Source: Clostridia bacterium 41_269
Lineage (GTDB): Bacteria > Bacillota > DTU086
Length of the DNA: 33,589 nucleotides
Direction of reading: 5' to 3'
Assembly: GCA_001508005.1 (NCBI GenBank)
Contig: LGEZ01000021.1
Location: 1 to 33,589, forward strand
Part shown: positions 21,371-26,072 of the stretch, piece after piece
Layout of the letters: every line of letters begins with the position of its first letter
Numbering within the stretch: the stretch's first letter is position 1
The notes under the pieces: generated by a model
Seen by the model: only the letters and a program-made list of their open reading frames with translations
Told to the model about the DNA's origin: nothing
The model's database searches: none
Position numbers and translations under genes: made by a program

Positions 21371-22168
21371 ATGAGGGTTAGGGCTCAAATTGTTGAACAT
21401 TTAAAAATAGGACGGGCATATTATCTTCTTGGCTTACATGCACCTGAAATTGCTCGTACTGCTGAAGCAGGTCAGTTTATAAACATCAGATGTGCTGAAA
21501 CACTGGATCCCTTGCTTAGGAGACCCTTCAGTTTCTATTCCATTGATAGGGATGCTGGAATTATTAAAATACTGTATGAAGTTAAGGGAAGGGGTACTGA
21601 AATCCTTTCAAAATATAAAGTGGGAGATTTTCTTGATATTATGGGACCCTTGGGCAGAGGTATTGATGAGTTGGATAACGGGGGGATACAGGTTATTCTG
21701 TTAGGTGGCGGAGTTGGTGGAGCTCCCATGGCAGCTTTGGCTGAAAAGCTTCATGAATGCGGCATGAGGGCAATTCGCGTTCTCTTAGGAGCTTCTACCA
21801 TGGATAGGTTGATCCCTTTTGATGTTTTTAAATCCCTTGGAATTGAAGTCTCTGCAGCCACTGAAGATGGAAGTTTAGGATACAAGGGTTTTGTAACGGA
21901 TCTTCTTAAAAAGCAACTTGAAAAATTCGAAAGAAAGGATTGTTTGGTGTATGCCTGCGGTCCAAAAGAAATGCTCAAGGCTGCAGCGGAAATCTGCAGA
22001 AACAAAGGGGTAAAATGTATTGTCCTGATGGATGCATTAATGGCCTGTGGGGTTGGTGCCTGTCAGGGATGTGCTTTAAAGGTCAGGGATGAAGATGGTG
22101 TAGAAACATACGTAAGAGTCTGCACGGAAGGACCCAATTTTGATGCCCGGGAGGTAGTATGGGAATGA
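21371..22168 (+). CDS. pyrK: Dihydroorotate dehydrogenase electron transfer subunit
   Basis: PyrK carries FAD and a [2Fe-2S] cluster and passes electrons from PyrD-B to NAD. The protein has 265 aa from ATG 21371, nine bases after AAGGAG; an in-frame ATG at 21347 touches the terminator and has no site. Domains: an FAD-binding barrel (LLRRPFSFYSID near 45, then DFLDIMGPLGRG), an NAD-binding part (VILLGGGVGGAPMAALAEKL; VYACGPKEML) and a C-terminal cluster loop CGVGACQGC (C-x4-C-x2-C), with the fourth Cys in VRVCTEGP. The pyrD start overlaps its stop by ten bases, as expected for subunits of one complex. Confidence 0.94.
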   Translation: MRVRAQIVEHLKIGRAYYLLGLHAPEIARTAEAGQFINIRCAETLDPLLRRPFSFYSIDRDAGIIKILYEVKGRGTEILSKYKVGDFLDIMGPLGRGIDELDNGGIQVILLGGGVGGAPMAALAEKLHECGMRAIRVLLGASTMDRLIPFDVFKSLGIEVSAATEDGSLGYKGFVTDLLKKQLEKFERKDCLVYACGPKEMLKAAAEICRNKGVKCIVLMDALMACGVGACQGCALKVRDEDGVETYVRVCTEGPNFDAREVVWE

Positions 22169-23085
22169 GCATTGAGGTGGATCTAAGTATAGATATAGCA
22201 GGTATAAAAATGCAAAACCCTGTAATAACGGCTTCAGGAACCTTCGGCTTTGGCCTGGATTATCTCCATTACTATGATGTTAATAAACTTGGTGCTGTAG
22301 TGGTTAAAAGTATTACAAAAAATAAAAGAGAGGGAAATCCTCCGCCTAGAATTATAGAAACCCCAGCGGGACTGCTCAATTCCATAGGGCTGGCAAACCC
22401 AGGCATAGACTTTTTCATTAAGGAAGTTATACCCCAAATGGATTCCATAAGAATTCCTGTTATAGTCAGCATAGCAGGGGATGAAATCGAAGAGTATGTG
22501 GAACTTGCATCTAGGCTGGATAAACAGGATAGAGTTGCTGCACTGGAATTAAACATTTCATGTCCCAATGTTAAAAAGGGCGGCTTAGAATTTTCAACCA
22601 GTGCAGAACAGGTAGAAAAGCTGACTGTTTCTGTCAGGAAGGCAACCAGCCTTCCCATAATAGTGAAGCTGTCGCCCAATGTAACGGATATTGTGGAAAT
22701 TGCCCAGGCTGCTGCTGCCGGTGGAGCCCATGCCCTTTCCCTTATAAATACAGTTTTGGGTATGGTTATTGATGTTAAAATGAGAAAACCCGTTTTGGGA
22801 AATAAAAAAGGAGGGCTGGCCGGTCCGGCGATTAGGCCCATTGCAGTGAGAATGGTTTGGGATGTTTCCCAGGCAGTGGATATACCAGTGATTGGTATGG
22901 GGGGAATATGTACTGCCGAAGATGCCCTACAGTTTATAATGGCCGGTGCAAGTGCTGTTGCAGTGGGAACATGGAACTTTGTGAATCCCACTGCTCCGCT
23001 GGACATCATTGATGGGCTTAAAGAGTTCTGCATAAAAGAAGGAGTTAAAGATATCAAAGAATTAATAGGGTGTTCGTGGAAATGA
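22159..23085 (+). CDS. pyrD: Dihydroorotate dehydrogenase, class 1B catalytic subunit
   Basis: Oxidises dihydroorotate to orotate using FMN, with PyrK as electron outlet. The length is 308 aa, as for the family. Visible are NPVITASGTFGFG near residue 18, the substrate loop TPAGLLNSIGLANPG near 70, the catalytic cysteine in LNISCPNVKKGG near 135, KLSPNVTDI near 170, and the FMN-phosphate loops IGMGGICTAEDA and AGASAVAVGTWNF. ATG 22159 or 22165 could both serve. Class 1B is indicated by Cys at the catalytic position and the linked pyrK. The gene ends 18 bases before the IS607 insertion point. Confidence 0.95.
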   Translation: MGMSIEVDLSIDIAGIKMQNPVITASGTFGFGLDYLHYYDVNKLGAVVVKSITKNKREGNPPPRIIETPAGLLNSIGLANPGIDFFIKEVIPQMDSIRIPVIVSIAGDEIEEYVELASRLDKQDRVAALELNISCPNVKKGGLEFSTSAEQVEKLTVSVRKATSLPIIVKLSPNVTDIVEIAQAAAAGGAHALSLINTVLGMVIDVKMRKPVLGNKKGGLAGPAIRPIAVRMVWDVSQAVDIPVIGMGGICTAEDALQFIMAGASAVAVGTWNFVNPTAPLDIIDGLKEFCIKEGVKDIKELIGCSWK

Positions 23086-23162
23086 GAAAATGCAATGATA
23101 GGAGGTAGCAACAGTTAAAGATAGTTATGCAAAAGGGTATAATTTTAATTAGGCGATGATAG

Positions 23163-23756
23163 ATGTTATTAAGTGTGCAAAAAGTAAAAGAAATATACTC
23201 AATTAGTCGAAGGACACTTATAAACTGGGAAAAAGAAGGGTTAATTACGCCTCTTAGAACTCCAAAGGGTAGAAGAAGGTATAGAAAAGAAGATATAGAG
23301 AAGCTATTAGGTATGATAGAAGAAAAACCAAAACCGACTGTAGTTTTATATGCAAGAGTATCTACAAAAAAGCAGGGAGAGTACCTAAAAAATCAAATCA
23401 GGAGACTTGAAGAATATGCCAATTTGCAAGGTTGGCGGTATGAAGTCATATCCGAAATAGCAAGTGGGGTAAATGAAAACAGGAGAGGTTTATTAAAGTT
23501 TCTGAACAAAATAAAAAGAGGAGAAGTTCAAAAAGTTGTAATAGAATATCCTGATAGACTGGCAAGGTTTGGTTTTGAATATCTTAAATTTTTTATGGAA
23601 AGCATTGGAGTAGAGCTTGTAGTTTTGAATGGAAAGGAAAATGAAGAAGATGTAAACAAAGAACTAGCAGAAGACTTAATAGCAATAGTTACATCATTTG
23701 CAGCCAGGATTTACGGGCAAAGAGGTGGTAAAAAGCATGATAACAATACAGGCTAA
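23163..23756 (+). CDS. tnpA: IS607-family serine recombinase transposase
   Basis: Small serine site-specific recombinase that catalyses IS607 transposition. The 197-aa protein has an N-terminal MerR-like winged helix (residues 1-50: VKEIYSISRRTLINWEKEGL, then TPKGRRRYRKEDIEKLL), the reverse order of usual resolvases and typical of IS607. The catalytic domain begins with VVLYARVSTKKQ, with Ser67 as nucleophile and Arg65 nearby. It continues with ASGVNENRRGL and the arginine motif EYPDRLARFGFEYL, ending in the FAARIYGQRGGKK helix. It overlaps tnpB by 20 bases. No frameshift or stop is seen, so it appears active. Confidence 0.93.
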   Translation: MLLSVQKVKEIYSISRRTLINWEKEGLITPLRTPKGRRRYRKEDIEKLLGMIEEKPKPTVVLYARVSTKKQGEYLKNQIRRLEEYANLQGWRYEVISEIASGVNENRRGLLKFLNKIKRGEVQKVVIEYPDRLARFGFEYLKFFMESIGVELVVLNGKENEEDVNKELAEDLIAIVTSFAARIYGQRGGKKHDNNTG

Positions 23757-25188
23757 ACTTACTTTCCCGAGCGAGGGAGACGAGCAAATAGTGCTGGATT
23801 TAATGAGAAGATGGTCATCCTGCATGAGATATGCATACAACAGGCTTTTAGAAGGATACAGCAGAAATGAACTCAAAAGAGAACTTCAAGGAGTTTTCAA
23901 TTTAAATTCGAGGTATGTAGATGATGCGATAATGAAGGCGAAAAGCGTTCTTGAGTCATGCAAAGAAAGGGGCGAAAACCCCGGCAATGTTATTTTTGGT
24001 GGCAGGGGCTTATTTGAGAAGCTCAAGAAGCGGCACATAAATGGAAAAGCATACAAAAAACTGCAGCGCAAGTGGCAGGAAAAGCGTAAAGGCAACCTTT
24101 ATTCACGGGGAGACAAAAGCAAGAAGGGAAATCTTAACACAAGAATTGAAACCAAAGGCAAGGGCACTTGGCTTAGAATCAATATAGGGGAAAGACAATA
24201 CATATATGCAAGATTAAATGCAGGATGGAAGAAAGGCGAAAGTCGAGACCTAATACTTCAGACAATTGGTATTAACGAAGATCCTTATTCCGTAGAGTTA
24301 AAGGTTAAGAACGGCAGGGTATATGCTTACTTTACAATTGAAGAAAATCTTCCAGAAATTGTGGTAACAAAGGGAAATGGAGTTATAGGCATAGACGTTA
24401 ATGCTTATCCGAACCACATAGCATGGGCAGAAGCGGATGAGAACGGGCAACTGATAAGATACGGTAAAATTCCGATGCCTGAACTTGAAAGCGGGAATTC
24501 GGATAAGAGGGAATACTTTAGGTGGCAGTATGCTTACAAGATAGTAGGAATAGCCAAAGAGAAACGGAAGGCCATAGTAATCGAAAGACTGGACATAAAA
24601 GATAAAGGTAAGCGAGGCGACTTTTCTGGTAGGAAATCTAGGAGGATAAGGCACAGCTTCAGTTATAAGTCTTTTTTAGAAAAGATCAAAGTCTTAGCTA
24701 AACGCAATGGAATAGAGGTCATAGAAATTAATCCTGCTTATACATCGGTAATAGGAATGTTGAAGTATGCACCGCAGTACATGATAAGCAAGGACGTTGC
24801 AGCAGCGTATGTGATAGCAAGAAAAGGATTGGGATTAAAAGAAAGGATTCCCAACAATTACATTAAAGTTCTTGAATCATTGGATATTGAGAGTTTAGAA
24901 GAGTTAAAGGACTATGTTAGAAAGACTGTTCAAAATAAGCATTTAAGGAAGAAACATTTAAGAGAAATAGACAGGACAATAGAGATTTTACAAAGCCTTG
25001 GGAGTAAGTCAGGGAGGGCATCAGAACCTCTGGATGGAACAAGCTCTGGTGCCTGTAGCGCAAGCTATAATCTCTGGCGAGTTCTCAAGGCAGCGGTGGT
25101 AACCCCACTCTCCCCTGAGAGGGTATTAAGGGACGTCTCTGTCCTGAAGGGAGTATTACATTCAGGGCAAGTGGGGAGACCCGGTTAA
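23737..25188 (+). CDS. tnpB: TnpB RNA-guided nuclease (RuvC), zinc-ribbon-less variant
   Basis: TnpB proteins are omega-RNA-guided DNA endonucleases, ancestral to Cas12, that help keep their element. ATG 23737 (AGAGGTGG seven bases upstream) gives 483 aa. RuvC motifs: Asp220 in VIGIDVNAYPNH, Glu283 in IVIERLDIKDKG and Asp353 in MISKDVAAAYVIARKGLG, so the D-E-D triad is complete. Between Glu283 and Asp353, where most TnpB have a CxxC...CxxC zinc ribbon, there are no cysteines; the segment reads NPAYTSVIGMLKYAPQY. The last 60 or so residues are low-complexity and lie on DNA that is strongly structured as RNA, so the coding 3' end overlaps the omega RNA. Confidence 0.9.
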   Translation: MITIQAKLTFPSEGDEQIVLDLMRRWSSCMRYAYNRLLEGYSRNELKRELQGVFNLNSRYVDDAIMKAKSVLESCKERGENPGNVIFGGRGLFEKLKKRHINGKAYKKLQRKWQEKRKGNLYSRGDKSKKGNLNTRIETKGKGTWLRINIGERQYIYARLNAGWKKGESRDLILQTIGINEDPYSVELKVKNGRVYAYFTIEENLPEIVVTKGNGVIGIDVNAYPNHIAWAEADENGQLIRYGKIPMPELESGNSDKREYFRWQYAYKIVGIAKEKRKAIVIERLDIKDKGKRGDFSGRKSRRIRHSFSYKSFLEKIKVLAKRNGIEVIEINPAYTSVIGMLKYAPQYMISKDVAAAYVIARKGLGLKERIPNNYIKVLESLDIESLEELKDYVRKTVQNKHLRKKHLREIDRTIEILQSLGSKSGRASEPLDGTSSGACSASYNLWRVLKAAVVTPLSPERVLRDVSVLKGVLHSGQVGRPG

Positions 25189-25334
25189 AAGGGCGCGAGT
25201 TCCTGCTTCTTGGGGCAGGGGCTATGGGAGTGCTTAAATATCGCCTGCTGGGAGTGAGCACTCTCTGAAAGGGCGAACCATAAATAGCCCAGCCGTCTAA
25301 ACTTGTGTAGTTTTGCACAGTTTAGATGACCAGG
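25103..25334 (+). ncRNA. Probable omega RNA (reRNA) scaffold of the IS607 TnpB
   Basis: The tnpB 3' end and following non-coding DNA hold a chain of paired segments. CCCCACT (25103-25109) pairs with AGTGGGG (25170-25176), enclosing CCTGAA (25143-25148) with TTCAGG (25161-25166). Then CCTGC and GCAGG lie near 25202-25218, GAGTGCT (25228-25234) pairs with AGCACTC (25257-25263), a GGGC/GCCC stem follows, and last comes the TCTAAACT/AGTTTAGA hairpin at the element end. TnpB guide RNAs occupy exactly this position and take their guide from the flank. The guide here would begin at about 25333-25335, reading into pyrF. The 5' limit is uncertain. Confidence 0.65.
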
Positions 25335-25343
25335 ATATAACAG

Positions 25344-26072
25344 GTGAATGGGAATTCCGAAAAATTAATTGTGGCACTTGATTTTGATAATTTTAGCGAT
25401 GCTGCTGCTGTTGTTGAGCAGGTTCATGATGTTGTGGGAATGTTTAAGGTGGGAATGGAGCTTTTTTACAGCGAAGGCTCAAAGGTATTGGACTTTATTC
25501 ATCAGAAGGGATCAAAGGTATTTTTGGATCTGAAATTACATGATATTCCCAATACAGTGGCCAAGGCAGTCAGGGTCTTGACCCGCTGCGGAGCTGCAAT
25601 AATAGATGTACATATTTCTGGGGGAAAGGAAATGGTGAAGAAAGCGGTGGAAGCAGCAAAAGAGGAAGCATACAGGCTTAATATTGATCCTCCTTTCGTT
25701 GTAGGGGTAACGGTGCTTACAAGCCTCACAGAAGAAATGTTGAGGTCAGAAGTGGGCATTAATGAAACCCCTGAAGAAACTGTATTGAGATGGACGAAAA
25801 TGGGGCTTGAATCAGGTTTAGATGGGGTTGTTGCTTCAGCTAAGGAAGCTTCTGCAATTACTAGGGAATGCAGCTGCGGCTTAATTATTACTCCGGGAAT
25901 AAGGCCTGCTTGGGCTGCGGAAAATGATCAGAAGAGAGTTCTTACTCCAAGGGAAGCAGTGGAAGCAGGAGCTACCCATCTCGTGGTGGGAAGGCCAATA
26001 ACCCAAAGCAGCGATCCCAGGTCTGCTGTTCTGCGTATACTGGAAGAGTTGGAAGGCTTAACTGAAAAATAA
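25344..26072 (+). CDS. pyrF: Orotidine 5'-phosphate decarboxylase
   Basis: Decarboxylates OMP to UMP, the last step of de novo pyrimidine synthesis. The 242-aa protein has the catalytic D-x-K-x-x-D array in FLDLKLHDIPNTVAKAV near residue 60, an N-terminal VALDFD substrate strand, GVTVLTSL near 122, and the phosphate loop IITPGIRP near 180, followed by VVGRPITQ. GTG 25344 is the start. Its original ribosome binding site AGGAGG was cut by the IS607 insertion; the site left now is only a weak AGG in CCAGGAT, so translation is probably reduced unless the element supplies help. pyrE follows 15 bases later. Confidence 0.94.
   Translation: MNGNSEKLIVALDFDNFSDAAAVVEQVHDVVGMFKVGMELFYSEGSKVLDFIHQKGSKVFLDLKLHDIPNTVAKAVRVLTRCGAAIIDVHISGGKEMVKKAVEAAKEEAYRLNIDPPFVVGVTVLTSLTEEMLRSEVGINETPEETVLRWTKMGLESGLDGVVASAKEASAITRECSCGLIITPGIRPAWAAENDQKRVLTPREAVEAGATHLVVGRPITQSSDPRSAVLRILEELEGLTEK

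What the first reader, a model, noticed from the sequence alone, without database searches (positions are those of the whole stretch)
23098..25346. IS607 insertion sits exactly inside the ribosome binding site of pyrF, and the empty site can be rebuilt
The left flank ends ...GATAGGAGG at 23105 and the right flank begins GGATATAACAG before the pyrF GTG. Sharing one GG, the joined flanks read AGGA-GG-ATATAACAG-GTG, an ideal Shine-Dalgarno site and spacing. In the present state pyrF keeps only a weak CCAGGAT. The element therefore both separates pyrK-pyrD from pyrF-pyrE and damages pyrF translation, unless transcription or translation from the element compensates. GG targeting is established for IS607; the rest is read directly.
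Basis: partly seen in the sequence, partly recalled or inferred. Interest (0 to 1): 0.72.

Follow-up and report, generated by a model that had tools for sequence, protein, structure and literature searches.

The report
Transposon that nests in ribosome-binding sites
A jumping gene of the IS607 family sits inside the translation start signal of the gene pyrF, and about 80 related copies in other heat-loving bacteria show that this kind of element usually lands in exactly such start signals, even those of essential genes, and leaves a weaker signal of its own in place.

Summary
An intact IS607-type element (tnpA, tnpB, structured right end) separates pyrD from pyrF inside pyrF's Shine-Dalgarno (SD) sequence. 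Occupied copies alone left the left border ambiguous, because GGAGG precedes every copy. Eleven orthologous empty sites in sister genomes settled it: ten hold GGAGG exactly where the element sits, one a G-run. So GGAGG is target DNA, the crossover GG is 23104-23105, and the rebuilt site AGGAGG-ATATAACAG-GTG is right. The same-genus relative has GGGGGGATATAACA there.

The larger result is that this is the rule for the subfamily. Of 79 independent insertions, 65 (82%) have a start codon 4-13 nt after the right end, against 15% for random GG and 25-27% for GGAGG. Downstream genes include dnaN, gyrA, thrS, aspS, metG and rimM. Elements with RAGATH-18 RNA show the same trend (about 14 of 19). The published TAM of such TnpBs is AGGAG, which is an SD core.

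Predicted SD pairing falls from -10.2 to -4.1 kcal/mol at pyrF (median -11.8 to -4.3), but AGGA remains. Tolerated insertions at essential genes argue that the replacement site works, so pyrF is probably weakened, not lost. I found no report of SD nesting in the searched library. No expression was measured.

The parts
22159..23085 (+). pyrD (dihydroorotate dehydrogenase), upstream neighbour
   Evidence: PF01180 E 1e-86; stop TGA 19 nt before the target GGAGG
23101..23105 (+). GGAGG: host target, the 5' part of the former pyrF Shine-Dalgarno (AGGAGG with A 23100), left upstream of the element; crossover GG = 23104-23105
   Evidence: GGAGG in 54 of 58 left junctions and in orthologous empty sites of 10 of 11 insertions
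23104..25334 (+). IS607-family element (2231 bp with one GG at each end)
   Evidence: both ends shared with copies in other genomes that have unrelated flanks
23115..23143 (+). likely tnpA promoter (-35-like TTAAAG; TTGAAA in most copies; 17 nt; -10 TATAAT)
   Evidence: read from the sequence and from aligned copies; not picked up in the window by the consensus scan, so inferred
23163..23756 (+). tnpA, serine recombinase with N-terminal MerR-type HTH, intact
   Evidence: NF033518 E 2.9e-67; PF00239 and PF00376; matches the ISC1926 TnpA catalytic domain, PDB 6dgc, E 1.4e-31
23737..25188 (+). tnpB, 483 aa, open frame intact; its 3' end overlaps the structured right-end RNA
   Evidence: TIGR01765 E 5.7e-24, TIGR01766 E 1.1e-18, guided_TnpB NF040570 E 1.7e-15 but below its cut-off; no Pfam-A match at E 0.001, no PDB sequence match
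25145..25334 (+). right-end structured RNA, probable omega/reRNA scaffold, ending CCAGG
   Evidence: 26-copy alignment: 39 predicted pairs, 15 with compensatory change; no Rfam family matches
25332..25336 (+). AGGAT: present SD remnant of pyrF, made of right-end AGG and right flank AT
   Evidence: anti-SD duplex -4.1 kcal/mol now, -10.2 in the rebuilt site
25335..25354 (+). predicted 20-nt guide: pyrF leader and start codon
   Evidence: position next to the right end, by analogy with PMC10711439 and PMC11061315; inferred
25344..26072 (+). pyrF (orotidine 5'-phosphate decarboxylase), intact, only copy found in the genome
   Evidence: PF00215 E 4.9e-58; single match in G000

Best explanation
The element belongs to an IS607 subfamily whose target is GGAGG, the Shine-Dalgarno core. 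Shown: insertion at the last GG of GGAGG, so that the element always points in the direction of the downstream gene; the host GGAGG stays at the left junction, and the downstream gene is left with the element's right end (..ACCAGG) plus its own spacer and start codon; the right end is a conserved structured RNA. Inferred: TnpA recombines the element GG with the GG of GGAGG; the right end yields an omega/reRNA whose guide is the leader and start codon of the downstream gene; TnpB, with a TAM of about (A)GGAG, cuts the empty allele after excision so that copies at SDs persist; most copies inside genes are lost by selection; downstream genes survive because the AGG left at the junction, with read-through transcription, still allows weaker translation. 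At pyrF this means an altered and probably weaker ribosome-binding site, not a knockout.
For: Empty sites with GGAGG for 10 of 11 insertions; 65 of 79 independent insertions have a start codon of an ORF of 40 aa or more 4-13 nt after the right end (51 with ATG), against 15% of GG and 25-27% of GGAGG in the flanking DNA (binomial P about 1e-24); the same in Caldicellulosiruptor-like genus g129 (33/40), G050 (4/4) and other genera (27/34); downstream genes dnaN, gyrA, rimM, thrS, aspS, metG, plsY, lon, sigE, ilvD, ychF; covarying right-end RNA; TAM 5'-AGGAG or GAGGG measured for 23 other IS607 TnpBs (PMC11061315); the right-flanking G belongs to the reRNA scaffold in ISXfa1 (PMC10711439), which fits AGGAG+G+guide; RAGATH-18 type elements show the same start-codon pattern.
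Against: No expression, transposition or cleavage data for this element. H. pylori IS607 TnpA alone needs only (G)GG (PMC6188088), so GGAGG preference may come from TnpA of this subfamily or from TnpB-dependent retention; not resolved. 14 of 79 insertions have no start codon in the window used, some inside genes (L055, L058). The TnpB is divergent and its nuclease activity untested.
Confidence: 0.85

Rival explanations
1. The left border lies 3 nt further left: GG 23101-23102 is the crossover and AGG 23103-23105 is element DNA, so the empty site was GATAGGATATAACAG and the pyrF SD is unchanged by the insertion.
For: All aligned copies begin GGAGG with unrelated DNA before it, as an element end would.
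Against: Orthologous empty sites contain GGAGG: the subject is 5 nt, not 2 nt, longer than the joined flanks; junction variants AGAGG and GAAGG keep the last GG but not the first; G001 has GGGGGG there.
Confidence: 0.02
2. The position in the pyrF SD is an accident of a transposase that needs only GG; nothing about SDs is special.
For: IS607 of H. pylori targets (G)GG with no further motif (PMC6188088).
Against: 54 of 58 left junctions are GGAGG; 82% have a start codon at SD spacing against 15% for random GG.
Confidence: 0.03
3. The target is GGAGG wherever it occurs; the excess at gene starts beyond the GGAGG background is produced wholly by selection against insertions inside genes, with no active preference for real SDs.
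For: GGAGG by itself already gives 25-27% start codons; non-SD GGAGG sites are mostly inside genes, where insertions would be purged.
Confidence: 0.5
4. The captured host SD drives a leader peptide at the left end that is translationally coupled to tnpA (RBS theft by the element).
For: Most copies have TTG 9-10 nt after GGAGG and a 13-codon open frame that ends 6 nt before tnpA.
Against: No codon-position pattern in the substitutions: mean entropy 0.69, 0.71, 0.83; the window copy has TTA instead of TTG; the same bases fit a -35/-10 promoter.
Confidence: 0.1

Closest known systems
IS607 family (IS607, IS1535, ISC1926; PMC6188088)
   Same: HTH plus serine recombinase TnpA, TnpB, GG at both ends, GG target, no target duplication
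   Different: Target here is GGAGG, in practice the SD of genes; H. pylori IS607 shows only (G)GG
RAGATH-18 reRNA IS607 TnpB systems (ISFba1; PMC11061315)
   Same: TAM AGGAG measured there matches the target found here; their insertions also lie before start codons
   Different: No RAGATH-18 match in this element or this genome; TnpB here is a different type (TIGR01765); the paper's text holds neither 'ribosome' nor 'start codon'
ISXfa1 IS607 TnpB (PMC10711439)
   Same: right-flanking G inside the reRNA scaffold, guide downstream of it
   Different: TAM GGG rather than AGGAG
IStrons (PMC4227781)
   Same: elements related to IS607 or IS605 that limit harm to the host gene
   Different: IStrons do so by self-splicing and 58% are intragenic; no group I intron was found here and the position before the start codon does the job

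Membership tests
IS607 family | TnpA: N-terminal MerR-like HTH plus serine recombinase catalytic domain | tested here: met
IS607 family | GG at both element termini and in the target, no target-site duplication | tested here: met
IS607 family | tnpB downstream of tnpA | tested here: met
   (TIGR01765, TIGR01766); guided_TnpB model only below its cut-off
IS607 family | excision as a circle and integration by TnpA | not testable with these tools
   needs PCR or an assay
RNA-guided TnpB (OMEGA) system | structured right-end RNA adjoining a variable guide | tested here: met
   15 covarying pairs among 26 copies, sequence variable directly after the terminal GG
RNA-guided TnpB (OMEGA) system | RNA-guided cleavage next to a TAM | not testable with these tools
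   TAM (A)GGAG inferred from empty sites and PMC11061315
RAGATH-18 reRNA IS607 group | RAGATH-18 RNA (RF03064) after tnpB | tested here: not met
   no match in the window or genome, while 16 other genomes of the phylum match
IStron | group I intron at the 5' end | tested here: not met
   no Rfam match in the window at gathering threshold

The most novel reading that the evidence does not exclude
A broad part of the IS607 family uses the Shine-Dalgarno sequence itself as integration site and TAM, so that each copy makes the leader and start codon of a host gene, often an essential one, into the guide of its own omega RNA and places its omega RNA at the 5' end of that gene's message; TnpB binding and ribosome loading would then compete on one transcript, which could make the element a regulator of the gene it sits in.
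Probability: 0.3. Interest if true: 0.85.

Novelty: new variant of a known kind. Interest (0 to 1): 0.62.

Why it matters
A mobile element that targets ribosome-binding sites can spread through essential genes without killing its host, because what it breaks (an SD) can be replaced by a few bases at its own end. It gives a biological reason for the AGGAG TAM measured for IS607 TnpBs: an SD core is present near thousands of genes in every Bacillota genome, in fixed orientation and always next to a gene that must stay intact. It also means that insertion points of such elements are natural tests of how much SD strength essential genes need, and that the omega-RNA guides of such elements can be read directly from gene starts.

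Tried and rejected
Left border at 23101 (my own first reading, note 1), dropped after the empty sites. Leader peptide at the left end, dropped for lack of codon periodicity. RAGATH-18, group I intron or other Rfam RNA in the element: none. + strand terminator in the element: none found. TnpB against PDB sequences: no match.

Full report
Observation. The window lies in a 1.67 Mb assembly (G000, 30 contigs). Between pyrD (22159-23085) and pyrF (25344-26072) lies an element with tnpA (23163-23756; IS607 transposase NF033518, E 2.9e-67) and tnpB (23737-25188; TIGR01765, TIGR01766). It is single copy in that assembly, and pyrF is present once.

Borders. Homologous copies were found in Caldanaerobacter, Thermoanaerobacter, Caldicoprobacter, Thermovorax, Thermosyntropha and other genomes, in an unnamed genus of 12 genomes (g129, single-contig genomes of 2.4-3.0 Mb; I take it to be Caldicellulosiruptor from genome sizes, not verified) and elsewhere in the phylum. 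All start GGAGG-T..-AACAGTTG and end GATGACCAGG, with unrelated DNA outside. Occupied copies cannot tell whether GGAGG is element or target. I first took it as element (note 1). The joined flanks of 24 insertions, without GGAGG, were then searched in the 12 sister genomes. Eleven insertions had orthologous empty sites among the loci fetched; in ten the empty site holds GGAGG between the flanks, in one (L171) a run of Gs. One insertion, L143 (before rimM), also has more diverged relatives with other SD variants. The same-genus genome G001 has the pyrD-pyrF junction TGA-aataatGGGGGGATATAACAAA-ATG, which aligns with AGGAGGATATAACAG.

SD nesting is the rule. After removal of inherited duplicates there are 79 independent right ends. 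In 65 (82%) an ATG, GTG or TTG opening a frame of at least 40 codons lies 4-13 nt after the terminal GG; 51 (65%) have ATG. In 242 kb of flanking DNA the figures are 15% (ATG 6%) after any GG and 25-27% (ATG 15%) after GGAGG (binomial P about 1e-24). ATG positions pile up at offsets 6-13, with about 8 per position against 1.2 further downstream. The pattern holds in g129 (33/40), in G050 (4/4) and in other genera (27/34). Thirty downstream proteins were scanned with NCBIfam: among the named ones are DnaN, GyrA, RimM, ThrS, AspS, MetG, PlsY, SigE, Lon, IlvD, YchF, HinT and YbaB. Several of these are usually essential (established knowledge), and the genomes are from living strains, so genes with the element in their SD are expressed well enough.

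Effect on the downstream gene. Pairing with the anti-SD (ViennaRNA duplex) falls from a median of -11.8 to -4.3 kcal/mol over 58 insertions; at pyrF from -10.2 (rebuilt) to -4.1 (present), with -10.5 for G001. AGGA remains 8 nt before the pyrF GTG. No terminator-like site was found on the + strand of the element. A weaker pyrF RBS is thus predicted; loss of function is unlikely. Nothing was measured.

Right-end RNA. The last 190 nt of 26 copies give a consensus fold with 39 pairs, 15 of them with compensatory changes, and a closing helix between UGG (columns 38-40) and the terminal CCA (columns 203-205) just before the last GG. The window's own RNA is more stable than shuffles (z -2.6). No Rfam family matches. 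This is the expected anatomy of an omega/reRNA with its guide in the right flank, so here the guide would be the pyrF leader and start codon (25335-25354), and the omega-RNA scaffold lies directly upstream of the pyrF start on one transcript.

Known work. TAM depletion with 23 other IS607 TnpBs gave 5'-AGGAG (18 of 22 strains) or 5'-GAGGG (PMC11061315); ISXfa1 gave GGG, with the right-flanking G in the RNA scaffold (PMC10711439). AGGAG plus that G plus guide equals the AGGAGG target seen here. I therefore looked at RAGATH-18 (RF03064) elements of the same phylum: of about 19 right ends recognised by eye from their shared terminal sequence, 14 are followed by a start codon at 6-10 nt (10 with ATG), so SD nesting is not limited to this subfamily. 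Full-text searches for IS607 or TnpB with Shine-Dalgarno, ribosome binding site or AGGAG found no statement of it; subscription papers are not covered. IS607 TnpA from H. pylori inserts at (G)GG with no further motif (PMC6188088).

Which protein chooses GGAGG is open. tnpB has kept a long open frame in most copies while tnpA is often decayed, and eight copies in genome G401 (L144, L145, L147-L152) share a derivative of about 1.73 kb without a full tnpA, yet seven of the eight sit at GGAGG (L151 at GGAAG). This fits TnpB-dependent retention but does not exclude TnpA specificity in trans.

Noticed in passing
L144, L145, L147-L152 (genome G401): Eight insertions of one derivative of about 1.73 kb that keeps tnpB but lacks a full tnpA, seven at GGAGG and one at GGAAG: a TnpB-only element that has multiplied.
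   Followed up: partly
L075 (724 bp) and L185 (753 bp): Short non-autonomous derivatives with both ends and no full tnpB, also placed before start codons.
   Followed up: no
window 25145-25334 and homologous right ends: Covarying right-end RNA that has no Rfam family; a candidate new omega/reRNA family.
   Followed up: partly
window 23737-25188: The TnpB (TIGR01765 type) has no Pfam-A match at E 0.001 and no PDB sequence match, although the D-E-D motif can be read by eye (GIDVN, IERLD, SKDVAAA).
   Followed up: no
L134, L135, L151, L055 left junctions: Left-junction 5-mers AGAGG, GAAGG, GGAAG and GGAGA: for L134 the empty relative has GGAGG, so the stranded SD seems to decay after insertion.
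   Followed up: partly
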